Source of the DNA: Gemmatimonadota bacterium
Lineage (GTDB): Bacteria > Gemmatimonadota > Gemmatimonadetes > Longimicrobiales > Gaopeijiaceae
Direction: 5' to 3'
Length of the DNA stretch: 64,000 nucleotides
NCBI GenBank assembly: GCA_022823225.1
Contig: JAJDXM010000097.1
Coordinates: forward strand, 1 to 64,000
The notes beneath the pieces are model-generated. The model was not told where the DNA came from. It did not search any database and saw nothing but the letters and a program-made list of their open reading frames with translations. Both the position numbers and the translations under genes were made by a program. Each line of letters begins with the position of its first letter. Position 1 is the stretch's first letter. Of this stretch, positions 17,045 through 62,106 are shown in pieces.

Positions 17045-19555
17045 TCAATGTCCGCCACCCACCGCCGCCGGTTCCGCAACCACGAAGTTGAGAAGCCTGT
17101 CGGGGATGTGGACGACCCGGCGCACCTCCTTGCCCTCGAGGTGCCGCGCGACGTTGGCTTCGGCCTGGGCAGCTGCCGCCACTACCGTTTCCGTCGCTCC
17201 CACCGGGACGGAGACCGTGCCGCGCACGCGCCCATTGACCTGCACCGCCACCCGGGCCAGCTGCTCCGCGGTCTTGGCGGGGTCGAAGGGCGGCCAGTTC
17301 GCGCCGTCAAAGATGCTCCCCGTGCGGCCCAGTCTCCGCCACAACTCCTCCGCGATGTGGGGCGCGAAGGGCGCGACCATGCGCACGAGCGGCTCGATCT
17401 CGGCGTGGGTCGGCGAGCGCCCTCCCGCGCGCGCCCTGTTCAGGTACTCCATCATCGCCGCGATCGCGGTGTTGTATCGGAGCGTCGCCACCTGTTCCGT
17501 GACCTTCTCGATCGTCTGGTGCAGCTTGCGCTCGACATCCTGGTCCATCGCGTCCGCCGCCGCATCGTCGCGGTCCGCGGTCCCATGCTCGCCGGTCACG
17601 ACCGACTCCCACAGGCGGTGCAGGAAGCCGTGCGGGCCGGAGATCCCCTTGTCCTGGTAGTCCCCGCCCTCGACGAAGGGCCCCAGGAACATCAGGTACA
17701 GCCGGAAGGTGTCGGCCCCGTAGCGCTCAATGACGGGATCCGGCACGATCACGTTCCCCTTGCTCTTGGACATCTTGGCGCCCTCGCGAATGATCAAGCC
17801 GTGGGCGCGGAAGCGGTCGTACGGTTCCTCGAAGTCGAGCAGGCCCATGTCGTTCAGGGCCATCACCACGAAGCGCGAGTAGAGCAGGTGAAGGACGGCG
17901 TGCTCGTTGCCGCCGATATAGCAGTCCACCGGCAGCCAGCGCCGCGTGATCTCGGGGTCGAAGGCCCGGTCGGAGAAGTCGGTCGACGGGTAGCGCAGGA
18001 AGTACCAGGCGCTGTCCAGGAAGGTGTCCGATACGTCCGTTTCGCGTGTGGCGCCGCCGCCGCACGAAGGGCACGCCACTTCGTACCAGTCACGCACCCG
18101 CGAAAGGGGACTCACCCCGGACGCGTCCGGGCGGAAGTCCTCCACGTAGGGAAGGATGACCGGCAGATCCTCCTCTGGAACCGGCACGGCGCCGCAGTCG
18201 TCGCAATGGATGATCGGAATCGGCGGTCCCCAGTAGCGCTGCCGTGAAATGCACCAGTCGTGCAGCCGGTAGGTGACCTTGGCCTCGGCAAGTCCGCTTG
18301 CCTCCAGATCGGCCACGATCGCCGCCTTCGCCTCGTCCACATCGAGGCCGTCGTAGCGCCCCGAGTTCACGAGCGTCCCGGTCGGATACTCGTAGGCGAT
18401 CTCGAGCCGCGTCGAGGCATCCTCGCCCGGCGCGGCGATCACGCGGACGATCGGGAGCCCGAAGGCGTGCGCGAAGTCGAAGTCGCGCTCGTCGTGCCCC
18501 GGCACCGCCATGATCGCCCCGGTGCCGTACCCCATCAGCACGTAGTCCGCGATCCAGACCGGCACGCGCTCCCCGTTCGCCGGGTTGACGCAATGCCCCC
18601 CCGTGAAGACGCCCGTCTTGTGCTTCTCGATCTTCTTCCGGGCCACCAGGTCCATCGCCCCGGTGCGGGTGCGGTATGCCTCCACCTCTTGGCGGCAGGC
18701 GTCGCTTGTCACCGCATCGACCAGCGGATGCTCCGGGGCCAGCACCACGTAGGTCGCCCCGAAGATGGTATCGGGACGAGTGGTGAAGACCGTCACGCGC
18801 TCCTGCCCCGCGCCGCTGCCCTCCGCGATCGGGAAATGAAGCTCGGCGCCCTCGGAGCGCCCGATCCAGTTCCGCTGCGCCTTGATGGTCGTGTCCGACC
18901 AGTCGATGTGCCTGAGGTTGTCGAGGAGCTTGTCGGCGTATTCGGTGATCCGGAAGAACCATTGGCGGATGAACCGCTGCTCGACCCCGGTGCCGCACCG
19001 CTCGCAGGCCCCGACGATCACCTGCTCGTTCGCCAGCACGGTCATGCACGACGGGCACCAGTTGACCGGCGCCTCCTTCTGCTCGGCCAGACCGTGCCTG
19101 TAGAGCTGCAGGAAGAGCCACTGCGTCCACTTGTAGTACTCGGGGTCGGTGGTGTCGACCGTGTGGTCCCAGTCGAACATCCCCCCGATCCGGCGCAGCT
19201 GGCGACGGAAGTTGGCCACGTTGCCGGGGATCAGCTCGGTGGGGTGCACCCCCGTCTTGAGCGCGAAGTTCTCGGAGTGGATCCCGAAGGCGTCGAACCC
19301 GATCGGCTCGAAGACGTCGTAGCCGCGCATCCGCTTGTAGCGCCCGTAGACGTCCGCCCCGGTGAAGGCGTAGATGTTGCCCACATGCAGACCCTCGGCG
19401 GAGGGGTAGGGGAACATCATCAGGTTGAAGAAGGGGTTCCGCGCGCTCCGGAGTTCGTCCAGCGTGAAGGCGTTGGTCCGGTCGCGGTCCCACCTGTCCT
19501 GCCACCTGGCCTCCAGGGCGACCGGATCATAGGCGTTGTCGCCTTCGGTGGGCAT
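17045..19555 (-). CDS. leuS: Leucyl-tRNA synthetase
   Basis: About 836 residues. It charges tRNA-Leu. The class I HIGH-type motif is HVGN (57-60) within the PYPSAEGLHVGN context, and the KMSKS loop is intact (KMSKSKGN). A zinc-type Cys-x2-Cys pair (CPSCMT...CERCG) and a complete editing domain lie between. The WCISRQRYWGPPIP segment is typical of bacterial LeuRS. I chose the ATG at 19555, which gives the normal start before YDPVALEARWQ. An ATG at 19591 is possible and would add 12 residues; neither has a clear ribosome site. Upstream are 129 bases without a gene. Confidence 0.96.
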   Translation of the reverse strand: MPTEGDNAYDPVALEARWQDRWDRDRTNAFTLDELRSARNPFFNLMMFPYPSAEGLHVGNIYAFTGADVYGRYKRMRGYDVFEPIGFDAFGIHSENFALKTGVHPTELIPGNVANFRRQLRRIGGMFDWDHTVDTTDPEYYKWTQWLFLQLYRHGLAEQKEAPVNWCPSCMTVLANEQVIVGACERCGTGVEQRFIRQWFFRITEYADKLLDNLRHIDWSDTTIKAQRNWIGRSEGAELHFPIAEGSGAGQERVTVFTTRPDTIFGATYVVLAPEHPLVDAVTSDACRQEVEAYRTRTGAMDLVARKKIEKHKTGVFTGGHCVNPANGERVPVWIADYVLMGYGTGAIMAVPGHDERDFDFAHAFGLPIVRVIAAPGEDASTRLEIAYEYPTGTLVNSGRYDGLDVDEAKAAIVADLEASGLAEAKVTYRLHDWCISRQRYWGPPIPIIHCDDCGAVPVPEEDLPVILPYVEDFRPDASGVSPLSRVRDWYEVACPSCGGGATRETDVSDTFLDSAWYFLRYPSTDFSDRAFDPEITRRWLPVDCYIGGNEHAVLHLLYSRFVVMALNDMGLLDFEEPYDRFRAHGLIIREGAKMSKSKGNVIVPDPVIERYGADTFRLYLMFLGPFVEGGDYQDKGISGPHGFLHRLWESVVTGEHGTADRDDAAADAMDQDVERKLHQTIEKVTEQVATLRYNTAIAAMMEYLNRARAGGRSPTHAEIEPLVRMVAPFAPHIAEELWRRLGRTGSIFDGANWPPFDPAKTAEQLARVAVQVNGRVRGTVSVPVGATETVVAAAAQAEANVARHLEGKEVRRVVHIPDRLLNFVVAEPAAVGGGH

Positions 19556-19684
19556 GTCTGGAGAAATGCTGGAGCACTCGTGCGGTTTCATCCCGCGACT
19601 CGGGTCTTCTGTGGGGCGCTCGGGCCGGAAACAGGCTCGATCAACCGTAAAAGCTAACGAAAGCCGGCACGGCGTGTCCGACCG
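19556..19684. other. Short intergenic region upstream of leuS
   Basis: These 129 bases separate leuS from the aminopeptidase gene on the same strand and should contain the leuS promoter. I see no clear -10/-35 pair, T-box-like structure or terminator. The stretch around 19640-19670 is less GC-rich than its surroundings. Confidence 0.35.
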
Positions 19685-20827
19685 TTATCCCCCGGGGAGA
19701 AGCGTGAACGGATCCTCGGCGGTCTCCACGCCCACCCGCACCGCTTCGACGGCGGCCGATAGCGAGCCCCCGTGCGCCGTGAGCAGCGAATCGAAGTCCG
19801 GCAGCCGGTGATAGTAGCGCATGCGGCTCAGCAGCGTGGCGTTGTTGAGGGGCAGGGACAGGAAGCTGGAGAATGTGAGCGACTTGAAGCGTGGCTGCAC
19901 CTCGGTCTCGAAGCGGGCGCGGTGGCGCTCGAACACCGCTTCGCGGCGCGCGATCTTCTGGTCGCTCGTGGCGTCCGCGTCTCCGTAGACCGCGTCCAGC
20001 TCGTCGACCAGCCCGTCGATGAAGACCGAGAACAGCATCGCGTCGTCCCATCGATCACGGGCGCGCCTGCACCAGACCGTGTCGGTGCCGCCCCCGGACC
20101 GGGTACAGAAGAACTCGATGCTCCCCGCCCTTCCCACCCAGGTTGCGAAGCTCTCGTTGAACCGGACCCGCCCGGGCACGAAGAGGTGGTTGTGGGACAG
20201 CTCGTGGATGATCGTGCTGACCAGCTCCACCTCGTCGTACCGCAGGATCGTCGACAGGAGCGGGTCGGCGAACCAGCCGAGGGTGCTGAAGGCCGCGGTC
20301 GGCCGCAGGTAGGTGTCGAAGCCCTCGTGCTCGAGCTTCCGCTGCGCCCCCATGGCGTCCTCGAGGCTGAAGAAGCCCCTGTACGGAACCCGTCCCACCA
20401 CCGGGAACCACCAGGTCTTCGACGCCAGCCGGTCGCGGTAGGCGGCCGACAGCACCATCGCGAGGGTGTCGCGTTCCAGTTCCGTGTAGCTGGTGTAGCT
20501 GTCGCCGACATCGAGCCCCAGCCGGTCCCGGGCGAACTCGCGTGCCTCGCGTGCCAGGATGAGCTTGCCGCGCGAGCGCTCGTCGGTTTCCGGGGCGAGG
20601 ATCACCTCGGGGATCGGCTGGCGGGCGCGGAGGATCTTCGCCTCCGCCCACCCCGCCTTGATCACGTACATTGGGGAGCAGGCGGCCCCGGGCCAGAGCA
20701 CGACCGCGGCGAGCAGCGCGCCCGCCGCGGCCAAGAGCGCCCGGCGCCGCCGGCGAGCAGGCCGCGCCGCCCGGCCCGGTCTCCGCCCCGCCCCGGACGA
20801 CTCCTGCGAAGAGCCGCTAGCGCCCAC
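19685..20827 (-). CDS. Putative zinc aminopeptidase (DUF2265-type), lipoprotein-like
   Basis: 380 residues. A basic N terminus and hydrophobic stretch (30-49) end at Cys50 in a loose lipobox, so the protein is probably attached to a membrane. The zinc site is HELSH (208-212) with a downstream Glu (Asn-Glu-Ser, Glu225), matching the putative-aminopeptidase family PF10023. The family is thought to be a metallopeptidase; its substrate is unknown. The start lies 11 bases inside the upstream SPFH gene, so the two are coupled and may act together at the membrane. Confidence 0.8.
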   Translation of the reverse strand: MGASGSSQESSGAGRRPGRAARPARRRRRALLAAAGALLAAVVLWPGAACSPMYVIKAGWAEAKILRARQPIPEVILAPETDERSRGKLILAREAREFARDRLGLDVGDSYTSYTELERDTLAMVLSAAYRDRLASKTWWFPVVGRVPYRGFFSLEDAMGAQRKLEHEGFDTYLRPTAAFSTLGWFADPLLSTILRYDEVELVSTIIHELSHNHLFVPGRVRFNESFATWVGRAGSIEFFCTRSGGGTDTVWCRRARDRWDDAMLFSVFIDGLVDELDAVYGDADATSDQKIARREAVFERHRARFETEVQPRFKSLTFSSFLSLPLNNATLLSRMRYYHRLPDFDSLLTAHGGSLSAAVEAVRVGVETAEDPFTLLPGG

Positions 20828-50008: not shown

Positions 50009-50622
50009 CCGTTCTCCCGACGCCTTGCCAGCGCCCGATCCGACCCCGGCGGCGCGGCCTCCGCGTCGACCGCCGCGCCGATGGCCCGCGTGTACCAGGC
50101 GAGCGTCTCGACAAAGCCCGCGAACGCCTTCTCGTAGTGCTCCTCCACCGTTTCGCCGTCGTCGCTGAAGCTCCTGGCGACCTTCGACACCGCCATCCCC
50201 GCCACCGGCAGCGCCTTCAGTCTCAGGAAGAGCAGCTGGAGGTGATTGTGCAGCTGAACACCGCCGAATCCGCCGGCCGACACGGTGACGATCCCGACCG
50301 GCTTTCGGAACCATTCTCCGTAGATGTAGTCGAGTGCGTTCTTGAGCACGCCCGGCATCGACCCGTTGTACTCGGGACTCACGACCACCACGGCGTCGGC
50401 GCGGCGGATTGCGTCCGAAAAGCGCTTGAGCCCCGGGGGCGGGTCGTCGCGCTTGTGGAGCCGCTCCTCCATGATCGGAAGGTCGAACTCGCGGAGGTCG
50501 AGGAGAGGAGCGTTGGCGCCTGCGCGGGCCAGCCGGTCGCTCGCGAAGCGGGCTACGCGCATGGTCAGGCGGCCGCGGCGCACCGAGCCGACCAAAACGG
50601 GGATCTGCAGCGGGCGATTCAT
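50005..50622 (-). CDS. NAD(P)H-dependent FMN reductase
   Basis: 205 residues; the ATG overlaps the ligase stop (ATGA). A flavodoxin-like fold with the FMN-phosphate loop near GSVRRGRLT (12-20) and the isoalloxazine-binding SPEYNGSMPGVLKNALDY, the hallmark of NADPH-dependent FMN reductases (PF03358). It could supply reduced flavin or detoxify quinones. Its place between the aryl-CoA ligase and metG may reflect service to the flavin-dependent ring-reducing step of the neighbouring pathway; that link is inference. Confidence 0.9.
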   Translation of the reverse strand: MNRPLQIPVLVGSVRRGRLTMRVARFASDRLARAGANAPLLDLREFDLPIMEERLHKRDDPPPGLKRFSDAIRRADAVVVVSPEYNGSMPGVLKNALDYIYGEWFRKPVGIVTVSAGGFGGVQLHNHLQLLFLRLKALPVAGMAVSKVARSFSDDGETVEEHYEKAFAGFVETLAWYTRAIGAAVDAEAAPPGSDRALARRRENG

Positions 50623-52145
50623 CGGGAACGCTTGAGCGCGCCGCGGTCCACCTTTCCCAGATGGGTGCGGGGCAGGTCGGGGAGGATGTGGACTTCGCGG
50701 GGGATCTTGTAGGACTCGATGCGCCCACGGGCGTGGTCGCGAAGCGTCGCGCCGTCGACGGCCGCATCGGCGGCCTCCGGCACCACGAACGCCACCGGCA
50801 ACAGCAGGCCGTCTTCGTCAGGTATCCCCACCACGGCCGCCTCCCGGACGCCCGGGTGTTGCAGCAGGCACTCCTCGGCCTCGCGCGGCGAAAACCACTT
50901 CCCCGAGACCTTGAGCAGATCGTCGGCGCGGCCCTGATAGGTGAAGCAGCCGTCCTCGTCCCGGGTCATCATGTCGCCCGAGATGTACCAGTCGTGCGCG
51001 AAGGCGCGCCGGGTCTCGCGGGGGCGCTGCCAGTAGCCGTGAGCGCGGGAACCGCCCCGCACCCGCATTCGGCCCACCTCGCCGGGCCCAACCTCGCGGC
51101 CCGCATCGTCGCAGAGCCTTACCTCGAAGCCGGGGACCGGGGTGCCAAGGGTGCCGGGCCGCACGTTGCCGGGCCGGTTCGAGATGAAGATGTGCCACAT
51201 CTCCGCCGTGCCGAGGCCGTCGAGCAGCTCGACGCCGAAGGTGTCGTTCCAGCGGCGGTGCAGCGATGGCGGCAGGGCCTCGCCCGCCGAGGTGGCCAGG
51301 CGGAGGCAGCTCAGGTCCTGCTCGGCCGCGCGTGGGTGCGCGAGCATGTGATTCACCATTGTGGGCACGTTGACGAGGATCGTGGGGCGGTGACGGGCGA
51401 TCTGGCGGAAGAGCTCCCCGGCCGTGCAGCGGTCCGGAAAGAGCACCGCCGAGCCGCCCACCGCCATGGGGAAGAAGAGGTTCGAACCTGTAGCGTAACC
51501 AAAATACAGCTTCGGGACGGAGAGGGTGATGTCGTCCGCGGAGTAGCCGAGTACGCCCTTTGCGTAGCATTCCGTGGTATTTGCGAACGAGGCGTGGCTT
51601 TGGACGACCCCCTTGGGCCGCCCCGTGGTTCCACCTGAGAACAACCAGATCGCCGGGTCGTCGGAATGTGAAGTAAAGTTGACATAATGTAAAGACGACT
51701 TGTCAATCAAGGCATCCCCGTCTTCGGTTCCGAGGACGATCGGGCGGGGAACCTGCCGGGCACGCGGGGCGGCGGCCAGGAAGGCCTCCTCCTGGTTGAC
51801 GTGAAGTACGACCGCCGCGGCGCGGGTGTAGTCGTACATCTCGACGATCCGATCCGCGTCGAGAAAGCAGTTCAGCATGACGCCGACGCCGCCCATCTTG
51901 AGGGTGCCGAAGAGGGCGGCGGCGAAGTCGGGAATATCGGGGAGCGCGATCAGGACGCGCTGTTCGGGCCGGACCCCGATGGCCTCGAGCGCGTTGGCGA
52001 ACCGGTTGGCGCGCGACTGCAGCATCGCGTAGGTGACGATGTGGTCTCCGCTGCGCAGGGCGGGGTGGTCGCCGAGCCCGTCGCGGATGCGGTCGTCCAG
52101 GAAGTAGTCCGCGATGTTGAGGCTGGCGGGTGGGTCGACGGGCAT
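50619..52145 (-). CDS. Aryl-CoA ligase, probable 2-aminobenzoate (anthranilate)-CoA ligase
   Basis: 508 residues from the ATG at 52145. It belongs to the benzoate/4-hydroxybenzoate-CoA ligase branch of acyl-AMP-forming enzymes. The AMP loop is SGGTTGRPKGV (about 169-179), followed by GYATGSNLFFPMAVGGS typical of aryl-CoA ligases, then GLGTAEMWHIF, the hinge GRADDLLKVSGKW and the catalytic Lys near the end in RTHLGKVDRG. It makes an aryl-CoA from the acid, CoA and ATP. Kynureninase and the two-domain flavoprotein nearby point to anthranilate as substrate; benzoate cannot be excluded. It contains an AT-rich patch with an inverted repeat at 51679-51706. Confidence 0.88.
   Translation of the reverse strand: MPVDPPASLNIADYFLDDRIRDGLGDHPALRSGDHIVTYAMLQSRANRFANALEAIGVRPEQRVLIALPDIPDFAAALFGTLKMGGVGVMLNCFLDADRIVEMYDYTRAAAVVLHVNQEEAFLAAAPRARQVPRPIVLGTEDGDALIDKSSLHYVNFTSHSDDPAIWLFSGGTTGRPKGVVQSHASFANTTECYAKGVLGYSADDITLSVPKLYFGYATGSNLFFPMAVGGSAVLFPDRCTAGELFRQIARHRPTILVNVPTMVNHMLAHPRAAEQDLSCLRLATSAGEALPPSLHRRWNDTFGVELLDGLGTAEMWHIFISNRPGNVRPGTLGTPVPGFEVRLCDDAGREVGPGEVGRMRVRGGSRAHGYWQRPRETRRAFAHDWYISGDMMTRDEDGCFTYQGRADDLLKVSGKWFSPREAEECLLQHPGVREAAVVGIPDEDGLLLPVAFVVPEAADAAVDGATLRDHARGRIESYKIPREVHILPDLPRTHLGKVDRGALKRSR
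51679..51706. repeat. Inverted repeat in an AT-rich patch inside the CoA ligase gene
   Basis: TTGACA (51679-51684) and TGTCAA (51701-51706) are perfect inverted arms 16 bases apart, in a roughly 50-base patch (51661-51715) that is far less GC-rich than the rest of the gene. It encodes an ordinary part of the ligase just before the AMP loop (Ser-Ser-Leu-His-Tyr-Val-Asn-Phe). Operator-like in shape, but a regulatory role is unproven. Confidence 0.4.
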
Positions 52146-52245
52146 GCGTGTGCGGCTTGGGGGGAAGGATGGTGGAGCGCATGCGTGCAGGCGCGGGGGG
52201 CATTCGGCGAAGCGTTTATGTTTAGTGACGAAGGAGGGACGGTCA
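52146..52245. promoter_or_regulatory. Divergent control region of the tryptophan/anthranilate cluster
   Basis: This 100-base gap separates the two arms of the cluster and should contain both promoters. CATGCGTG occurs twice, at 52143-52150 (including the ligase start) and 52180-52187, the second inside the near-palindrome GCGCATGCGTGC. Such a repeat pair could be an operator for one regulator. A less GC-rich TTTATGTTTA (52215-52224) lies about 30 bases before the rightward start. No regulator gene is adjacent. Confidence 0.4.
52231..52238 (+). promoter_or_regulatory. Ribosome-binding site fixing the creatininase-family start
   Basis: AAGGAGGG lies 7 bases before the ATG at 52246, the strongest ribosome site in this cluster. 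It decides against the earlier in-frame ATG at 52114, which lies inside the divergent ligase gene. Confidence 0.8.
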
Positions 52246-53130
52246 ATGGAAAACCACCCTCGCCGCTCCGAAGCCGCGCGGGATCCTTCCCCGGACCGCT
52301 GGGGACATGCGACGTGGACCGAGTTGGCGGAAGTCGGGATAGGGCGCGCGCCCACCACCTCACGCGGCGACCCGGTCGTCGCGGTGCTCCCGGTCGGCGC
52401 GGTCGAGGCGCACGGCCCCCACCTCCCCCTCGTCACCGACGTGATCATCGCGGTGGCGGCCGCGAAGGCCGCGCTGCCGGGTTTGCGGCGCCTCGGCTGC
52501 CGCCCCACGCTGCTGCCACCACTCGCCTACACGGCAGCTCCCTTCGCGGCGGGCTTCCCGGGAACGATCTCGGTGCGTCCGGCCACCGTCTCGGCCCTGC
52601 TCTCGGACATCGCGGAGTCGCTGGAGCAGCAGGGCGTGGCTGCGCTGGTTGTGGTCAACGCCCACCTCGATCCGGCGCACCTGGGGGCGATCGCCGAGGT
52701 TGTGGCCGGGCGGGACGCGGGACCGGGCGGCGCGGGCGGCCAGCCCGGCGCGGCAGATGGCCCCGGCGGGGCGCCGACCCCGTCCCGCCCCATGCCCGTC
52801 ATCCACCCCGACCTGACCGAGCGGCGCTGGGCGTCGCGCCTGACCGACGAATTCCGCAGCGGCGCGTGCCACGCGGGTCGATACGAGACGTCGGTCGTGA
52901 TGGCGGCGACGCCGGGGCTGGTCCGCGAAGATGTCAGGGCCGGGCTGCGCGAGAACCCGGCGTCGCTCGCGCGCGCGATCCACCGCGGCACGGCGACCTT
53001 CAAGGAAGCGGGAGTGGCTGAGGCCTACTGCGGCGATCCCGCCGCCGCGACCGCGCGGGAAGGTGAGGAAACGGTGGCTGCGCTGGCCGCGATCGTGGTG
53101 GAGGCGGTGGCGGAGGGGCTGGGGCGATGA
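52246..53130 (+). CDS. Creatininase-family amidohydrolase, candidate N-formylkynurenine formamidase
   Basis: 294 residues. The creatininase metal site is largely intact: Glu54 and His56 in GAVEAHGPHLPL, Asp65 eleven residues after Glu54, His140, and Glu214 in HAGRYETS. The usual NGHGGN around the fourth ligand is changed to NAHLDP, which suggests a different substrate. A Gly/Pro/Ala-rich insert occupies about 157-180. Family members hydrolyse amides, including creatinine and, in ArfB, a formamide. It is first of the plus-strand arm, whose other members include tryptophan dioxygenase and kynureninase but no KynB. The formamidase role is inference. Confidence 0.82.
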   Translation: MENHPRRSEAARDPSPDRWGHATWTELAEVGIGRAPTTSRGDPVVAVLPVGAVEAHGPHLPLVTDVIIAVAAAKAALPGLRRLGCRPTLLPPLAYTAAPFAAGFPGTISVRPATVSALLSDIAESLEQQGVAALVVVNAHLDPAHLGAIAEVVAGRDAGPGGAGGQPGAADGPGGAPTPSRPMPVIHPDLTERRWASRLTDEFRSGACHAGRYETSVVMAATPGLVREDVRAGLRENPASLARAIHRGTATFKEAGVAEAYCGDPAAATAREGEETVAALAAIVVEAVAEGLGR

Positions 53131-53930
53131 GCGACGCCGGAAAGGGGGCCGTCGTGACCGGCGGCGGCCGCGGGATCGGTGCGGCCGTGGCGGAAGCGCT
53201 GGCGGTGTCGGGGGTGCCGGTCGTCGTGACGGCGCGGACCCCGGCCGAGATCGACGCGGTGGCCGACGGGTTGCGGGCGCGCGGCCGCACCGCGTTCGCA
53301 GTCGTCTGCGACGTAACCGAGCCCGATTCCGTCGCGGCGATGGCTGCCCGGGCGCAGGAGCTCCTCGGCAGTGTGGACATCCTCGTCAACAACGCCGGGG
53401 TGGCCCGCTCGGCACCCTTCCTCAAGGTGACGCTCGGGCAGTGGGAGGATGTGCACCGCGTGAACGCCACCGGGGCGCTGCTGGTCACGCAGGCGTTCCT
53501 CCCGGGGATGCTGGAGCGCGGCTGGGGACGGATCGTGAACGTGGCGTCGGTCGCGAGCCTCGGCGGGGCGCGCTACATCACGGCGTACGCGGCCGCCAAG
53601 CACGCCCTGATCGGGATGGCGCGCTGTCTTGCCGATGAGCTGGGCGGGACGGGAGTGACCGTCAACTCGGTCTGCCCGGGCTACGTGGACACGCCCATGA
53701 CGGACGAGAACATCGAGCGGATCGCGGCCAGGACGGGCCGGGACGCCGACGCGGTGCGCGCGGGCCTCGCGGAGATGCAGCCGGGCGGGCGCCTCATCAC
53801 GCCGCGCGAGGTGGCGTACGCCGTGATGACCTTCATGCCCGAGGAGGCGGCGGCGCTGCAGGGCAGCGAGCTGGTGGTGCGCGGTGGGGGGTGGGGGGCG
53901 GGCCCAGCCGGGGAAGGAGGCGCCGAATGA
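53127..53930 (+). CDS. Short-chain dehydrogenase/reductase
   Basis: 267 residues; ATGA overlap with the upstream gene. Classical SDR: cofactor loop TGGGRGIG (11-18), NNAGV, the catalytic Ser in NVASVAS and Tyr-x3-Lys in YAAAKHAL. CDVT with an Asp at the second strand is typical of enzymes in this class. It reduces or oxidises a hydroxyl/keto group. In this operon a cyclic or open 3-hydroxyacyl-CoA or an oxo-cyclohexene-CoA intermediate is a reasonable substrate, by analogy with 3-hydroxyacyl-CoA dehydrogenases in aerobic anthraniloyl-CoA clusters; this is inference. Confidence 0.9.
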   Translation: MSDAGKGAVVTGGGRGIGAAVAEALAVSGVPVVVTARTPAEIDAVADGLRARGRTAFAVVCDVTEPDSVAAMAARAQELLGSVDILVNNAGVARSAPFLKVTLGQWEDVHRVNATGALLVTQAFLPGMLERGWGRIVNVASVASLGGARYITAYAAAKHALIGMARCLADELGGTGVTVNSVCPGYVDTPMTDENIERIAARTGRDADAVRAGLAEMQPGGRLITPREVAYAVMTFMPEEAAALQGSELVVRGGGWGAGPAGEGGAE

Positions 53931-54409
53931 CCTGCGAGATCGTGAATCCGGAAGCGCTGGGCCGTCCCCGCGGGTGGAACAACGGGATGCTCGCGCCGGA
54001 GGGGGGCCGCGTGCTGTTCGTGGCGGGGCAGATCGGGGTGGGGGCGGAAGCCGGGCATGGCGAGGCCGGGCGTGGCGAGGCCGGAGCCGCGCCGGGGTCG
54101 CGGGGCCGCGACGCGCCGGATCTCGCCGCGCAGTTCGGGGCCGCGCTCGCGAACGTGAAGCGGGTGGTGGAGGGGGCGGGGGGGGCGGTCGCCGATGTAG
54201 GACGCCTCACCATCTACGTGACCGACATGGAAGCCTATCGGGGATCGCTGGCCGAGATCGGGGCCGCGTATCGGTCGGTGTTCGGGAAGCACTTTCCGGC
54301 CATGTCGCTGGTGGCGGTGACCGAGCTGGTCGATCCGCGCGCGGTGGTGGAGATCGAGGGGACCGCGGTGATCCCGCAGGCGGATCCGGGACCATCCACG
54401 GCTGGCTGA
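53927..54409 (+). CDS. RidA-family imine/enamine deaminase-like protein
   Basis: 160 residues from the ATG at 53927 (ATGA overlap with the SDR). YjgF/YER057c/UK114 fold: GRVLFVAGQIGVG at the start, DVGRLTIYVTDME in the middle, and the C-terminal DPRAVVEIEGTAVIP with the substrate-binding Arg. An about 25-residue Gly/Ala/Glu-rich insert (about 39-63) follows the first strand pair and is unusual. RidA proteins hydrolyse reactive enamines/imines to ketones and ammonia. The pathway predicted here yields an amino-cyclohexene (enamine) CoA ester, so a RidA step would release the nitrogen. Confidence 0.88.
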   Translation: MTCEIVNPEALGRPRGWNNGMLAPEGGRVLFVAGQIGVGAEAGHGEAGRGEAGAAPGSRGRDAPDLAAQFGAALANVKRVVEGAGGAVADVGRLTIYVTDMEAYRGSLAEIGAAYRSVFGKHFPAMSLVAVTELVDPRAVVEIEGTAVIPQADPGPSTAG

Positions 54410-54499: not shown

Positions 54500-55096
54500 G
54501 TGAAGAGTCTTCCCGAACGTATCGTGGAATACGCCGAGGCCACGCCGGAGGCCACGCCGATCTGCCCTAACGCCCTGCTGCACCTCGGCAACCGGGCGGC
54601 GGTGAATCAGGCGCTCTCCCGCCTGGCGCGTTCAGGCCGACTGCTGCGGATCTGCCAGGGTGTGTACATGCGTCCGATCCAGACCCGCTTCGGGCGGTGT
54701 GCGCCTGGCATCAGCAAGTCGCTCCAGGCGCTTTCGCAACTCTGGGGCGAGACGATCGTCCCGAATGGCGGCAGCGCGGCCAATTGGCTTGGGTTGACAA
54801 CGCAGAATCCGGTCCGTTCGGTGTATCTCACCTCGGGCCGCAACCGGCGATTGCACTTCGGCAACCACCCCGTTGACCTGCGCCATGCCCCGCGATGGCA
54901 ACTGGTCTCTCCGCACCGGATGACCGGGGTGGTCATCCGCGCCCTGGCATGGCTTGGCCCGGAAGAGGTGGAGGACAGCCTGGACGCGGTGCTGCCTCGA
55001 CTCTCCGAGCGGGAACTCCACGACCTGGCGACCGCGCGTGCCATCATGCCCAGGTGGATCGCCGAGCCGCTGAGCACGCGCCTTGCGAATGGCTGA
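54500..55096 (+). CDS. AbiEi/DUF6088-type antitoxin
   Basis: 198 residues from a GTG. An N-terminal winged-helix segment (about 20-60, with ALSRLARSGRLLRICQGVY) is followed by the antitoxin body with NGGSAANWLGL and TSGRNRRLHFG, as in DUF6088 proteins of AbiE type IV toxin-antitoxin systems. Such antitoxins bind DNA and repress their own operon, countering a nucleotidyltransferase toxin. It looks complete, but its toxin (next entry) is truncated, so it is probably a surviving orphan. It overlaps the toxin start by 8 bases (ATG at 55089, stop at 55094-55096). Confidence 0.82.
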   Translation: MKSLPERIVEYAEATPEATPICPNALLHLGNRAAVNQALSRLARSGRLLRICQGVYMRPIQTRFGRCAPGISKSLQALSQLWGETIVPNGGSAANWLGLTTQNPVRSVYLTSGRNRRLHFGNHPVDLRHAPRWQLVSPHRMTGVVIRALAWLGPEEVEDSLDAVLPRLSERELHDLATARAIMPRWIAEPLSTRLANG

Positions 55097-55400
55097 GACG
55101 CAGTTTCAGGATCTTTCGGCGGAGGAACGCCGCCATTCCTTGCGCGCCGTCCAGGCCGAAGGACCGCACCCCGCGTTCCTGTTCGAAAGGGACGTATGGG
55201 TTGTAGCGACGCTGGGTGTCCTGTTCGACTCCCCCTTCGGGCGACGGCTGGTCTTCAAGGGCGGCACCTCCCTGTCCAAGGTGTGGCGGGCCATCCGCCG
55301 GTTCTCGGAGGACATCGACATTACCTACGATATCCGGGACTTCGCGCCGGATCTGGTCGCCGGTGCCGACGGCGCGGCGCTGCCGCCCTCGCGCAGTCAG
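55089..55400 (+). pseudogene. Truncated AbiEii nucleotidyltransferase toxin
   Basis: About 104 residues of AbiEii remain. The nucleotidyltransferase motif KGGTSLSK and the metal pair in SEDIDITYD are present, and recognisable family sequence runs to Ala-Leu-Pro-Pro-Ser-Arg-Ser-Gln. After about 55400 the frame reads straight through into the start of the hydratase gene with unrelated residues. A full toxin has about 300 residues, so two thirds are missing. Keeping the catalytic motifs without the rest of the fold should give an inactive product. The junction lies 32 bases before the next start. Confidence 0.85.
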
Positions 55401-55431
55401 GAGCCAACGCCCACACACCGAGGGAACAGCC

Positions 55432-56253
55432 ATGACCGCCTTGAAATCCCCCAACCTCGCCCCCCCCAGCTCCTTCCTCCTGGACGTGGACACGGAGACC
55501 GCGGTCGCGCGGATCACCCTGAATCGCCCGGAACGGCTCAACGCGCTCACCTTCGAGGTCTACGACGAGCTCAGGAACACCTTCCGGGCGCTCGACACGG
55601 AGCCCGAGGTGCGCGCGATCGTGATTACGGGCGCCGGACGCGGATTCTGTACCGGCGGGGACGTCGAGGACATCATCGGGGCGCTCTTCGAACGGGACTT
55701 CGAGGGGCTGCTGGAGTTCACGCGGATGACCTGCGACCTGATCGCGGCGATCCGGCAGTGTCGGCAGCCGGTGGTGGCGGCGCTCAACGGGACGGTGGCG
55801 GGCGCGGGGGCGGTGATCGCGACGGCGTGCGACGTGCGGATCGCGGCGGAGTCGGCGCGGATCGCGTACCTGTTCACGCGGGTCGGGCTGTCCGGGGCCG
55901 ACATGGGCGCGGCCTGGCTTTTGCCGCGGATCGTCGGGCTGGGCCGCGCGAGCGAGCTTCTCATGTCCGGCGCCTTCATCGACGCCGCCGAGGCCCACCG
56001 GATCGGGCTCTACAACCGGGTGGTGCCGGACGGCGATGCGCTCGTCGCGGCGACGGAGCTCGCCGAGGAGTTGGCGCGCGGGCCGTCGTTTGCGCTCCAG
56101 GTCACCAAGGACGCGCTTAACAGCGAGGCGCACATGGGGCTGGAAGACGCGCTGGAGGCGGAGGCGCGGGCGCAGGCGGTGTGCATGATGAACCCCAACT
56201 TCCGCGAGGCGTACAACGCCTTCGTCGAGAAGCGGAAGCCGCGCTTTGATTAG
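55432..56253 (+). CDS. Enoyl-CoA hydratase/isomerase-family protein lacking catalytic glutamates
   Basis: 273 residues from the ATG at 55432 (GAGGGAAC upstream). Crotonase fold: NRPERLNALTFEVYDEL, the oxyanion loop GRGFCTGGDVEDI, and NGTVAGAGAVIATACD. Where hydratases have Glu (GGGCE and PEILLG) this protein has GAGAV and FTRVGLSGADMG, so both classical catalytic Glu are missing and an Asp in GADMG is present. It may be an isomerase, a ring-opening hydrolase or another crotonase-fold reaction. Its operon place suggests an alicyclic CoA intermediate of anthranilate as substrate. It overlaps the next TTG start. Confidence 0.87.
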   Translation: MTALKSPNLAPPSSFLLDVDTETAVARITLNRPERLNALTFEVYDELRNTFRALDTEPEVRAIVITGAGRGFCTGGDVEDIIGALFERDFEGLLEFTRMTCDLIAAIRQCRQPVVAALNGTVAGAGAVIATACDVRIAAESARIAYLFTRVGLSGADMGAAWLLPRIVGLGRASELLMSGAFIDAAEAHRIGLYNRVVPDGDALVAATELAEELARGPSFALQVTKDALNSEAHMGLEDALEAEARAQAVCMMNPNFREAYNAFVEKRKPRFD

Positions 56254-57403
56254 CCGCGAAGGGCTGTCGCTGGATCCGGTGGCGGCCTTCATCGAGCCGG
56301 GGCACCGGGAGTACCGGGAGCGGGTCCGGGCGTTTTGCCGGGAGGAGTTCGCGGGAGGGCGCGACCCGGACGGCGACGCTCAGGCGCGGGTTCGCGCACG
56401 CGAGCTGGTGGGGCTGATGGGCAGCGCGGGCCTCTTCGCGCCGATCGCCGGCGGCGACGTGCGCGGCTGTCTCGTGGCCCGCGAGGTGCTGGCGTGGTGG
56501 TCGCCGCTGGCCGACGCCGTCTTCGCGCTGCAGGCTTTGAGCGCGACGCCGGCGCTGGTCGCGGGGCGGGATCCGGGGGGGTGGGCGGCGCGCGCGGTGG
56601 CGGGCGACGCAATGGGCGCATTTGCCATGACCGAGCGCGGGGCGGGGTCGGACGTGGCCTCGATGACCACCCGGGCGGTGCGCGACGGCGACGAATACGT
56701 GCTCGACGGCGCGAAGAGTCTCATCTCGAATGCGGGCGTGGCCGACTTCTACGTGGTCTTCGCGGCGACCGACCCGGATGCGGGGACTCGCGGGATCTCC
56801 TGTTTCGTGGTGCCGGGCGACGCGGACGGGTTCGAGTTCGCGGGGGCGCAGGTGATGAGCGCGCCGCACCCTCTGGGCGAGCTGCGGTTCAATGGGTGCC
56901 GGGTGGGTGCGGACGCGATGCTCGGCGACGAGGGCGGCGGCTTCAGGACGGGGATGGCGACGCTCGACCGGCTGCGTCCAACGGTGGCGGCGGGGGCCTG
57001 CGGAATGGCGGGGCGGGCGCTTCGGGAGGCGGTGCTTCATGCGAGCGAGCGGGAGCAGTTCGGGCGGACGCTGGGATCGTTTCAACTGGTACAGGAGAAG
57101 CTGGCGGAGTCGGCCACGGAGCTGACTGCGGCGCGGTTGCTGACCTACCGGGCCGCCTGGGAGAAGGACCGGGGAGCGCCACGGATCACGGTCGAGGCGG
57201 CGATGGCCAAGGCGTTCGCGACCGAGGCCGCGCAGCGGATCGTGGACCGTGCCGTGCAGGTTCTGGGGGGACGCGGGGTGCTGGCGGATCATCCGGTGGA
57301 CCGCCTCTACCGGGCCGTGCGGGCGCTCCGGATCTACGAGGGGACGACGGAGATCCAGCACCTGATCATCGGCGGGGGACTGGTGCGGGATTCGGGGCGG
57401 TGA
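56246..57403 (+). CDS. Acyl-CoA dehydrogenase
   Basis: 385 residues from a TTG at 56246 overlapping the hydratase stop. Flavin-binding landmarks: [15 protein letters not shown] (about 126-140), [14 protein letters not shown], the dimer segment [20 protein letters not shown], and [19 protein letters not shown]. The catalytic base is Glu in [10 protein letters not shown], the position used by short- and medium-chain enzymes. It oxidises an acyl-CoA to the trans-2-enoyl-CoA, here probably the ring-opened or alicyclic product of the anthraniloyl-CoA route. It ends in a GTGA overlap with the flavoprotein gene. Confidence 0.9.
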
Positions 57404-59875: not shown

Positions 59876-60667
59876 ATGAGTGACGACGGACCGCCGATGG
59901 ACTACCAGCGCTTTGCGATGCTCCCGGAGTTGCTGTCGCTGCAGAGGCCGCTCTCCGACCCGCCGGAGCACGACGAGATGCTCTTCATCATCGTGCACCA
60001 GGTCCACGAGCTCTGGTTCAAGGCCGCGCTCCACGAACTGGACCATGCCCGCGGCCTCTTCATGGACGGCGAAGGCGCCCGGGCCGCCGCCACCCTCAAG
60101 CGCGTCCGCTCGATCATGAAGGTGCTGGTGGGCCAGCTCGACATCCTGGAGACGATGACGCCCATCGAATTCGAGTCCTTCCGCGACCGCCTCGAGACCG
60201 CAAGCGGGTTCCAGTCGGCGCAGTTCCGGGAGCTGGAGTTCGCGATGGGGATGAAGCGGGCCAAATACCTCAAGACCTTCCCGGACGCGGTAGAGCAGCG
60301 GCGGCTGCAGCGGAGGCTGAACGAGCCATCGCTCTGGGATGCATTCCTGCACTATCTGGCCGGCAGGGGGTGCGCGATCCCGCAGAGGGTTCTCGCCCGG
60401 GATGTGACCCAACCCGTGCGCCCCGACCCCGAGCTGCAGAAGGTGCTGATCCGGCTGTACCGCTCGGACCCCGAGGCGGTCAACTTCTGCGAGCGCCTGG
60501 TCGACCTGGACGAGGGATTTCAGGAGTGGCGCTACCGGCACATCAAGATGGTCGAGCGCACGATCGGCAACAAACCGGGCACGGGCGACAGCGCCGGGGT
60601 GGCCTACCTGGTCACCACGCTGCACCCCATGTTTCCGGACCTGTGGGAGATCAGGTCGGAGCTGTGA
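59876..60667 (+). CDS. kynA: Tryptophan 2,3-dioxygenase
   Basis: 263 residues; GGGAGGTGA about 10 bases before the ATG. This haem enzyme opens the indole ring of tryptophan to N-formylkynurenine. Seen in sequence: FIIVHQVHELWFKA with the distal His, FRDRLETASGFQSAQFRELE with the carboxylate-binding Arg, and RYRHIKMVERTIGNKPGTG with the haem-ligand His. Two departures from the usual type: GTGDSAG instead of GTGGSSG, and YQRFAML where most have Y-x2-YL. It ends in a GTGA overlap with kynureninase, fixing the pathway context. Confidence 0.93.
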   Translation: MSDDGPPMDYQRFAMLPELLSLQRPLSDPPEHDEMLFIIVHQVHELWFKAALHELDHARGLFMDGEGARAAATLKRVRSIMKVLVGQLDILETMTPIEFESFRDRLETASGFQSAQFRELEFAMGMKRAKYLKTFPDAVEQRRLQRRLNEPSLWDAFLHYLAGRGCAIPQRVLARDVTQPVRPDPELQKVLIRLYRSDPEAVNFCERLVDLDEGFQEWRYRHIKMVERTIGNKPGTGDSAGVAYLVTTLHPMFPDLWEIRSEL

Positions 60668-62106
60668 GGGGGGGTGGGGGCGGGGGCCGTGAGGGCGGGG
60701 GCGGCATCGCGCCCGGGCAGCTCGCGCGCCACTACTCGCGCTTTCGGGTGTCGGAGCGGGTTCTGCTCACCGGGCATTCCCACCAGGCGTGGCCGGACGT
60801 GGCCTTCGAGGCGCAGCAGCAGGCGTGGCTGGACGCCGCCGAAATGGTCGACGACAAGTGGGGCCGGGCCTTCGAGGTCGCCGGCGAGGTGCGGGCCGGG
60901 TACCGGCTGCTGCTGGACGACCCGGACGGCCACATCGCGCTCGGACAGAACACGCACGAGCTCCTGATCCGCTTCCTGTCGGCGCTCCCGCTGCGGGAGC
61001 GGCCGCGGCTGGTCACCACCGACGGCGAATTCCACACGATCCGGCGGCAGCTGGACCGGCTGGAGGAGGAAGGGATCGAGGTGGTGCGGGTTGGGGCGGG
61101 CTTTGTTCGGGGAGCGAACAAAGTCGGGTTGGGTGGCCGGGGGGAGGCGGGCGACGGGGCTGCGGGCGGCGGGTTGGCGGGTGCAGGCGCCGCGGGCGGC
61201 GGGCATTCGGCAGGGGCCGCGGGCGATTCCATAGCCGAACGAGTCATCCGCGCGGTGGACGACCGGACGGCCGCGGTGCTGGTGTCGTCCGTGCTCTTCC
61301 GTGACGCCCGGATCGTGGAGGGGCTGGACGAGGTGGCGGCGGCGTGCGCCCGGGTCGGAGCCGAGCTGCTGGTCGACGCCTACCACTCGCTCAACGCAGT
61401 GCCGTTTTCGGTGGCCGGGATGGGGCTGGAGAACGCGTTCGTGGTGGGCGGGGGGTACAAGTACTGCCAGTTGGGGGAAGGGAACTGCTTTCTGAGGATT
61501 CCGCGGGACTGCAGGCTGCGGCCCGTGGCGACGGGATGGTTCGCGGAGTTCGGGACGCTGGCTGGGGCGGGGGGTGGTGGCGGGGGTGTGGACGACGGTG
61601 AGGGCGGCCGGGGCGCCGATGAGGGCGCGGGCGCCGATGAGGGCGCAGGTGACGATGAGGCCGGACGGCCGCGGGTGCACTACGGCGAGGGCGACATCCG
61701 CTTCGCCGGCTCGACCTACGACCCGGTAAGCCACTACCGGGCGGCGGCGGTGTTCCGGTTCTTCGAGGAGCAGGGGCTCACGGTCGACCGGCTCCGAGAG
61801 GTCAGCCTCGCGCAGATCCGGCGGCTGGCGGCGGGGGTGGACGCGCTGGACCCGGATCCGCGCGTGTTGCGCCGGGACCGTGCCGTGCGGCTGTCGCGCC
61901 GAGGCGGCTTTCTGACCATGGAGACGCCCGCCGCCGGGGAGATCTGCTGCAAACTCCGCGGGCGTGGCGTCTACGCGGACTATCGTGGCCGCGTGCTGCG
62001 CCTGGGGCCGGCGCCGTACGTGACCGGGCGGCAGCTGGATGAGGCGGTCGCCGTGCTGGGGGAGGTGGTGGGGGGGTTGGGGGAGGGTGGGGGTAAGGGC
62101 CTTTGA
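60664..62106 (+). CDS. kynU: Kynureninase
   Basis: 480 residues from a GTG overlapping the dioxygenase stop. A class V PLP enzyme that cleaves kynurenine to anthranilate and alanine. GEFHTIRRQLDRL, VDAYHSLNAVPF and the Schiff-base Lys266 in GGGYKYCQLGEGN are the family blocks. Two low-complexity inserts rich in Gly, Ala, Asp and Glu (about 141-179 and 302-335) make it some 60 residues longer than the usual roughly 420. The first insert contains a perfect 9-base hairpin in the DNA. The first 14 residues are also Gly-rich. The product anthranilate is the predicted substrate of the divergent CoA ligase. Confidence 0.9.
   Translation: MRGGGGGGREGGGGIAPGQLARHYSRFRVSERVLLTGHSHQAWPDVAFEAQQQAWLDAAEMVDDKWGRAFEVAGEVRAGYRLLLDDPDGHIALGQNTHELLIRFLSALPLRERPRLVTTDGEFHTIRRQLDRLEEEGIEVVRVGAGFVRGANKVGLGGRGEAGDGAAGGGLAGAGAAGGGHSAGAAGDSIAERVIRAVDDRTAAVLVSSVLFRDARIVEGLDEVAAACARVGAELLVDAYHSLNAVPFSVAGMGLENAFVVGGGYKYCQLGEGNCFLRIPRDCRLRPVATGWFAEFGTLAGAGGGGGGVDDGEGGRGADEGAGADEGAGDDEAGRPRVHYGEGDIRFAGSTYDPVSHYRAAAVFRFFEEQGLTVDRLREVSLAQIRRLAAGVDALDPDPRVLRRDRAVRLSRRGGFLTMETPAAGEICCKLRGRGVYADYRGRVLRLGPAPYVTGRQLDEAVAVLGEVVGGLGEGGGKGL
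61101..61123. repeat. Perfect hairpin within the first kynureninase insert
   Basis: CTTTGTTCG (61101-61109) pairs exactly with CGAACAAAG (61115-61123) around a GGGAG loop. It lies at the edge of the Gly-rich insert that normal kynureninases lack. It may mark a palindromic element that was built into the gene in frame. Confidence 0.6.

What the first reader, a model, noticed from the sequence alone, without database searches (positions are those of the whole stretch)
52246..53130. Creatininase-family protein as the missing N-formylkynurenine formamidase
The cluster has the enzymes before (dioxygenase) and after (kynureninase) the deformylation step but no KynB-type cyclase or arylformamidase. 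The first gene of the operon is a creatininase-family amidohydrolase with metal ligands Glu54, His56, Asp65, His140 and Glu214, and a changed NGHGGN motif (NAHLDP). Another creatininase-family enzyme, ArfB, is known to hydrolyse a formamide. A non-orthologous replacement of KynB is therefore chemically plausible. An alternative is hydrolysis of a ring amide or lactam later in the pathway.
Basis: inference. Interest (0 to 1): 0.75.

Follow-up and report, generated by a model that had tools for sequence, protein, structure and literature searches.

The report
Creatininase-type deformylase in tryptophan breakdown
A gene for a creatininase-family hydrolase is a fixed part of a bacterial gene cluster that breaks tryptophan down through anthraniloyl-CoA, and across at least six phyla it occurs just where an enzyme is needed to remove the formyl group left by the first step, so it is probably a new kind of formamidase, although no activity has been measured.

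Summary
The gene is real: start, operon position and metal ligands hold, and Asp142 is a sixth ligand-type residue at the place of creatininase Glu122. The cluster joins tryptophan dioxygenase (TDO) and a divergent kynureninase to the Azoarcus-type anthraniloyl-CoA module: ligase, monooxygenase/reductase, SDR, enoyl-CoA hydratase, acyl-CoA dehydrogenase, RidA. The creatininase (CR) is the only extra enzyme. That module runs without CR in many bacteria, so CR is not core to ring degradation. CR tracks TDO: 75 of 79 CR+ Gemmatimonadota genomes (the other four have clusters cut by contig ends), 34 of 34 CR+ genomes mostly from other phyla, 11 of 11 in an Acidobacteriota sample where only 30% have TDO. 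KynB sits next to TDO only with a canonical kynureninase. This supports an arylformamidase. The narrower claim, N-formylkynurenine as substrate, is only partly supported: CR lies beside the CoA ligase (90 of 115 loci), never within 400 bp of TDO there, and is absent from nine genomes with TDO plus divergent kynureninase but no CoA module and no KynB. N-formylanthranilate fits at least as well. KynB/CR exclusivity is confounded, because the KynB locus read in full is the 3-hydroxyanthranilate route. No activity was measured. Best reading 0.6.

The parts
52246..53130 (+). creatininase-family hydrolase (CR), proposed arylformamidase; ligand-type residues E54, H56, D65, H140, D142, E214
   Evidence: PF02633 164 bits; invariant residues in alignment A1; AF2 pLDDT 89.9, Z 23 to creatininase
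50619..52148 (-). benzoate/2-aminobenzoate-CoA ligase (LIG), divergent from CR
   Evidence: TIGR02262 453 bits, cut-off 375; within 400 bp of CR in 90 of 115 loci
53127..53930 (+). SDR, 3-hydroxyacyl-CoA dehydrogenase type; start overlaps the CR stop (ATGA)
   Evidence: PF00106/PF13561; same gene in ABM modules of other phyla
53891..54409 (+). RidA family (enamine/imine hydrolase); 5' end uncertain
   Evidence: PF01042, 58 bits
55432..56253 (+). enoyl-CoA hydratase family (PRK08258 type)
   Evidence: NF006107 380 bits, cut-off 330
56246..57403 (+). acyl-CoA dehydrogenase
   Evidence: PF00441/PF02770
57388..59856 (+). FAD monooxygenase fused to old-yellow-enzyme reductase, 2-aminobenzoyl-CoA monooxygenase/reductase type (ACMR); 5' end uncertain
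   Evidence: NF006101 1058 bits, cut-off 1078; PF01494 + PF00724
59876..60667 (+). tryptophan 2,3-dioxygenase (TDO)
   Evidence: PF03301 196 bits; TIGR03036 266 bits, below its cut-off of 391
60664..62106 (+). divergent kynureninase-like PLP enzyme (KYUd); 5' end uncertain
   Evidence: KYNU_C 31 bits; no TIGR01814 match; only PDB hit is kynureninase 1qz9, E=2e-9

Best explanation
CR is a metal-dependent arylformamidase of the creatininase fold that removes the formyl group created by TDO, so that free anthranilate can be loaded on CoA by the neighbouring ligase and degraded by the ACMR module. Proposed route: Trp -> N-formylkynurenine (TDO) -> [deformylation by CR and alanine removal by the divergent kynureninase, order unknown] -> anthranilate -> anthraniloyl-CoA (LIG) -> ACMR, RidA, hydratase, dehydrogenases. 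Shown: gene, fold, conserved site, cluster, distribution. Inferred: metal binding, substrate, order and activity.
For: (1) CR is the only enzyme beyond TDO + kynureninase + a complete anthraniloyl-CoA module; complete modules without CR occur on Comamonas, Azospirillum and Deinococcus plasmids and in other Gemmatimonadota families. (2) CR implies TDO: 75/79 genomes in the class against 103/216 CR- genomes, Fisher p=1.5e-15; the four exceptions have CR loci cut by contig ends; 34/34 further CR genomes; 11/11 in Acidobacteriota with TDO in 53/179. (3) Eight class genomes with ACMR but no TDO have no CR. (4) KynB lies next to TDO at 11 loci, always with canonical kynureninase where one was seen (9/9); 0 of 58 loci with the divergent kynureninase have KynB next to TDO. 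(5) Every locus seen with divergent kynureninase plus intact module has CR there or in the genome, apart from contigs cut short and one degenerate case. (6) CR lies next to the CoA ligase; in one Acidobacteriota operon it lies directly after KYU and TDO (L305). (7) Fold and site are creatininase-like; other creatininase-family proteins deformylate formamides (BrbF, PMC9478397).
Against: No activity data. Nine genomes with TDO + divergent kynureninase but no module lack both CR and KynB, so a deformylase is either not needed there or is an unidentified protein, and the latter could serve CR+ genomes too. CR also depends on the CoA module (PRK08258-type hydratase found in 35 of 38 CR genomes). 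Within the class the cluster may be inherited as one block, so counts are not independent; presence/absence lists were transcribed by hand from tool tables of MAGs, some incomplete. Nine CR+ class genomes also have a KynB-like protein (mostly separate or long branches). KynB-CR anticorrelation partly reflects two different pathways.
Confidence: 0.6

Rival explanations
1. One reading: CR deformylates N-formylkynurenine before kynureninase, as a direct functional replacement of KynB. This is sub-case (b) of the best explanation, so its probability is contained in the 0.6.
For: CR tracks TDO in several phyla while KynB is absent from these clusters; in L305 CR directly follows KYU and TDO.
Against: CR absent from nine TDO + divergent kynureninase genomes without KynB; CR sits by the CoA ligase; the KynB cluster examined in full is the KMO/3-hydroxyanthranilate route.
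Confidence: 0.27
2. CR is a ring-degradation enzyme of the anthraniloyl-CoA module: it hydrolyses a C-C bond of a cyclic diketone (as creatininase-family IolN does) or a lactam after the ACMR step.
For: CR lies by LIG and SDR and CR genomes carry the module (35/38); weak IolN match, 31 bits.
Against: Modules with every other enzyme lack CR on Proteobacteria and Deinococcus plasmids and in sister Gemmatimonadota families; CR is absent from class genomes with ACMR but no TDO; no chemical reason why it should depend on TDO; IolN cut-off not reached.
Confidence: 0.17
3. CR serves the CoA ligase step in another way, for example as a thioesterase-like or proofreading hydrolase, or splits another anthranilate amide (N-acyl or N-malonyl).
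For: Stable LIG-CR pair, e.g. LIG-CR-THIO in Blastocatellia L208.
Against: Does not explain dependence on TDO; hotdog thioesterases are present beside CR in some loci; no creatininase-family thioesterase known to me.
Confidence: 0.1
4. CR is an unrelated family member with a housekeeping role (such as a BrbF-type riboflavin formamidase) that is only co-inherited.
For: The genome holds six PF02633 proteins; formamidases of flavin biosynthesis belong to the family.
Against: TDO co-occurrence across phyla, including genomes where CR and TDO are unlinked.
Confidence: 0.05

Closest known systems
BrbF (SMc02977 of Sinorhizobium meliloti), creatininase-family riboflavin formamidase (PMC9478397)
   Same: Annotated creatininase family; hydrolyses a formamide and releases formate
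   Different: Substrate is the pyrimidine nucleotide AFRPP; riboflavin context, not tryptophan; its sequence was not compared here
Archaeal ArfB
   Different: Riboflavin pathway of archaea; the BrbF paper reports lack of sequence similarity between BrbF and ArfB
KynB / bacterial arylformamidase (TIGR03035, PF04199)
   Same: Proposed reaction class: removal of the formyl group after TDO
   Different: Unrelated family; occurs with canonical kynureninase, in one locus read in full with KMO and 3-hydroxyanthranilate genes
Creatininase (1j2t, 1q3k)
   Same: Fold (Z 23, 2.8 A over 242 residues) and ligand positions
   Different: 24% identity; NAHLDP instead of NGHYEN; equivalog score 68 against cut-off 235
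MftE, mycofactocin peptidase (TIGR03964)
   Same: Best NCBIfam score among subfamilies, 97 bits
Azoarcus evansii 2-aminobenzoate (abm) pathway
   Same: Ligase, ACMR fusion, beta-oxidation type enzymes and RidA
   Different: As known to me, no TDO, no kynureninase and no creatininase in the abm cluster

Membership tests
Creatininase family PF02633 | HMM score over gathering cut-off | tested here: met
   164 bits against 31.3
Creatininase family PF02633 | Ligand pattern E..H........D / H.[DE] / E | tested here: met
   E54, H56, D65, H140, D142, E214 invariant in 28 orthologs
Creatininase family PF02633 | Fold | tested here: met
   AF2 model, Z 23.4 to 1q3k
Creatininase equivalog TIGR04448 | Curated score cut-off 235 | tested here: not met
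   67.8 bits
MftE TIGR03964 | Curated score cut-off 172 | tested here: not met
   96.7 bits
IolN NF041098 | Curated score cut-off 245 | tested here: not met
   31.1 bits
KynB arylformamidase TIGR03035/PF04199 | Profile match | tested here: not met
   No PF04199 or TIGR03035 match for CR
BrbF/ArfB formamidases | Orthology and AFRPP deformylase activity | not tested
   No reference sequence compared; activity not testable with these tools
Arylformamidase by function | Hydrolysis of N-formylkynurenine or N-formylanthranilate | not testable with these tools
   Needs purified enzyme
2-aminobenzoyl-CoA (abm/ACMR) pathway | Monooxygenase-OYE fusion plus CoA ligase, hydratase, dehydrogenases and RidA in one cluster | tested here: met
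   ACMR NF006101 1058 bits, just under its cut-off of 1078
Kynureninase TIGR01814 (window KYU) | Curated score cut-off 246 | tested here: not met
   No match; related L305 enzyme 134 bits; canonical L112 enzyme 430 bits

The most novel reading that the evidence does not exclude
A formyl-retaining tryptophan pathway: the divergent kynureninase acts directly on N-formylkynurenine, giving N-formylanthranilate and alanine, and a creatininase-type N-formylanthranilate deformylase, not KynB, supplies anthranilate to the CoA ligase. This accounts for CR needing both TDO and the CoA module, for the LIG-CR pair, and for genomes with TDO and this kynureninase but neither KynB nor CR.
Probability: 0.33. 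Interest if true: 0.75.

Novelty: new variant of a known kind. Interest (0 to 1): 0.62.

Why it matters
It would give a concrete candidate for a missing deformylation step in a tryptophan-catabolic cluster found in Gemmatimonadota, Acidobacteriota, Planctomycetota, Myxococcota, Eisenbacteria and Pseudomonadota, mostly uncultured. It would add a third substrate context for creatininase-family formamidases, and it would separate two bacterial kynurenine routes by gene content: KynB with canonical kynureninase, and CR with divergent kynureninase and anthraniloyl-CoA. Both questions are settled by simple assays on three small proteins. I found no paper linking creatininases to formylkynurenine in the held library.

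Tried and rejected
Genome cyclase as hidden KynB: rejected (66 bits, putative lipoprotein, other contig). CR as a core ring-cleaving enzyme of the CoA module: disfavoured because complete modules lack it. CR as a stand-in for the hotdog thioesterase of Proteobacteria modules: dropped, since most CR-free Gemmatimonadota modules lack the thioesterase too and some CR loci have it. An early argument that TDO-KYU and CR modules are separate in some genomes: withdrawn, because several of those cases are contig breaks or still lie side by side. L075/G136 (CR homolog in a KynB+ genome): set aside as a long-branch member in a hydantoinase A/B cluster, not a clean counterexample. KynB-like proteins in CR+ genomes: mostly separate from TDO-adjacent KynB in the tree; G129 is the least certain. 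A gene next to TDO-KYU that could be a third formamidase in CR-/KynB- genomes: none seen by eye. Literature: no paper on creatininase plus N-formylkynurenine function; antimycin review shows TDO + kynureninase without a named formamidase and says free anthranilate, not N-formylanthranilate, is activated there. Genome searches were exhausted (12 of 12), so KYU type was tallied only in fetched loci.

Full report
WHAT IS THERE. The ORF at 52246-53130 (+) codes for a 294-aa creatininase-family protein, called CR here. It is followed, with a 4-base ATGA overlap, by an SDR, then RidA, a 1-kb stretch with toxin-antitoxin remnants, an enoyl-CoA hydratase, an acyl-CoA dehydrogenase, a FAD-monooxygenase/old-yellow-enzyme fusion, tryptophan 2,3-dioxygenase (TDO) and a divergent kynureninase (KYU). 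A benzoate/2-aminobenzoate-CoA ligase (LIG) is transcribed the other way from the same upstream region. By established knowledge, ligase + monooxygenase/reductase fusion + beta-oxidation enzymes + RidA is the Azoarcus evansii type of aerobic 2-aminobenzoate degradation by CoA thioesters; the Arthrobacter Rue61a genome paper describes the same chemistry and reports a CoA ester that might be cyclohexanedione-carboxyl-CoA. So the cluster encodes tryptophan -> anthranilate -> anthraniloyl-CoA -> ring degradation. Below, 'module' (ABM) means the anthraniloyl-CoA genes and 'ACMR' the fusion.

THE PROTEIN. CR has the creatininase fold: AlphaFold mean pLDDT 89.9, VIA-align Z 23.4 to creatininase 1q3k at 24% identity. 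Glu54, His56, Asp65, His140, Asp142 and Glu214 are invariant in 28 orthologs. The genome has five other PF02633 proteins, and the four of them placed in the tree fall far outside the CR clade.

THE CLUSTER IS CONSERVED. tblastn annotation of 80 regions shows LIG(-)|CR-SDR-RidA-hydratase-dehydrogenase-ACMR-TDO-KYU over some thirty genera of the class, which is in Gemmatimonadota by the names of matching records. A scan of named genomes found 506 relatives; the best 80 include Acidobacteriota, Planctomycetota, Myxococcota, Eisenbacteria and Pseudomonadota.

CR AND TDO. In 295 genomes of the class, CR is in 79, and 75 of these have TDO, against 103 of 216 genomes without CR (Fisher p=1.5e-15). 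The four exceptions have CR clusters that run into contig ends. Of 34 CR genomes reached through the named loci, mostly from other phyla, all 34 have TDO, often on another contig and of different length class. In a sample of 179 Acidobacteriota, 53 have TDO, and all 11 with a strong CR match are among them. These counts were transcribed by hand from tool tables and are not corrected for shared ancestry, but the recurrence in unlinked form and in several phyla is hard to explain by one inherited block.

CR IS NOT CORE TO THE MODULE. Complete modules (ACMR, SDR, hydratase, dehydrogenase, ligase, RidA) without CR occur on plasmids of Comamonas, Azospirillum (the ligase there a weak match) and Deinococcus and in sister Gemmatimonadota families (L132, L134, L139, L140, L142, L147, L148). 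Eight class genomes with ACMR but no TDO have no CR. In contrast, two Pseudomonadota genomes with TDO and a divergent kynureninase carry CR next to a proteobacterial-type module (L222, L225). CR genomes nearly always also hold the module: 35 of 38 have a PRK08258-type hydratase.

TWO KYNURENINE ROUTES. At TDO loci, KynB neighbours TDO in 11, and where a kynureninase was seen there it is the canonical one (9 of 9). None of 58 loci with the divergent kynureninase has KynB next to TDO. Canonical enzymes score 313-430 bits on TIGR01814 (cut-off 246), the window enzyme has no match, and a distant member scores 134. The KynB locus read in full (L112) also holds genes that look like KMO, 3-hydroxyanthranilate dioxygenase and ACMSD (read by eye from the sequences), so it belongs to the 3-hydroxyanthranilate route. 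This weakens the negative correlation of KynB with CR (8 of 72 against 37 of 52 among TDO+ACMR+ genomes) as evidence for replacement: the two sit in different pathways.

WHICH FORMAMIDE. Nine genomes of the class have TDO with the divergent kynureninase but no ACMR, and they have neither clade CR nor KynB (G002, G056, G126, G139, G159, G163, G171, G228, G274; G163 keeps a hydratase, G171 is a short contig). Where this kynureninase occurs with an intact module, CR is present in the locus or elsewhere in the genome, apart from contigs cut short. CR therefore appears when both the kynureninase route and the CoA module are present, and its usual neighbour is LIG (within 400 bp in 90 of 115 loci) and not TDO (0 of 115), with one operon of order KYU-TDO-CR (L305). 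The simplest chemistry for this pattern is that the divergent kynureninase accepts N-formylkynurenine and CR deformylates N-formylanthranilate before the ligase. Direct action on N-formylkynurenine remains possible. I recall that kynureninases can accept N-formylkynurenine poorly; this is memory, not a test.

PRECEDENT. A creatininase-annotated protein of Sinorhizobium, BrbF, was shown to deformylate a riboflavin precursor (PMC9478397). I found no paper connecting a creatininase to formylkynurenine, and none joining the 2-aminobenzoyl-CoA pathway with kynureninase; the library holds open-access papers only.

VERDICT. Observation confirmed. 'Formamidase of the tryptophan route' is the best reading at 0.6; 'N-formylkynurenine formamidase' in particular 0.27; ring or lactam hydrolase 0.17. 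The class of reaction is supported by distribution and fold, not by activity.

Noticed in passing
window 54500-55466: AbiEi/DUF6088-type antitoxin gene and the truncated N-terminus of an AbiEii nucleotidyltransferase toxin (43 of 238 profile positions) lie inside the catabolic operon between RidA and the hydratase; relatives L063, L089, L162 and L163 have a gap of similar size at the same place, content not read.
   Followed up: partly
window 60664-62106: Divergent kynureninase with no TIGR01814 match; a separate kynureninase type tied to clusters without KynB.
   Followed up: partly
L152 (Deinococcus psychrotolerans plasmid) 17279-19692: Cyclase-family protein and a ThDP-binding enzyme inside an anthraniloyl-CoA module; could feed it from isatin (isatin hydrolase plus isatinate decarboxylase).
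   Followed up: no
L075 5490-14108: Long-branch CR homolog in a cluster with an ACMR-like protein, hydantoinase A/B, a CoA ligase and a ThDP enzyme; probably degradation of another amide or heterocycle.
   Followed up: partly
L001 1381-2208: Putative secreted or lipoprotein PF04199 cyclase in the window's genome, weakly like arylformamidase (66 bits); substrate unknown.
   Followed up: partly
L093, L094 and genus g4 genomes (G022, G059, G071, G083, G143, G179, G216, G285): TDO-positive genomes of one genus with no strong KynB, no CR and no ACMR match; the two loci read also show no kynureninase nearby; the role of TDO there is unclear.
   Followed up: no
L305 8047-9534: In some Acidobacteriota the ACMR fusion position is taken by a separate old-yellow-enzyme-like protein (495 aa) in an otherwise similar TDO-KYU-CR operon.
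   Followed up: no
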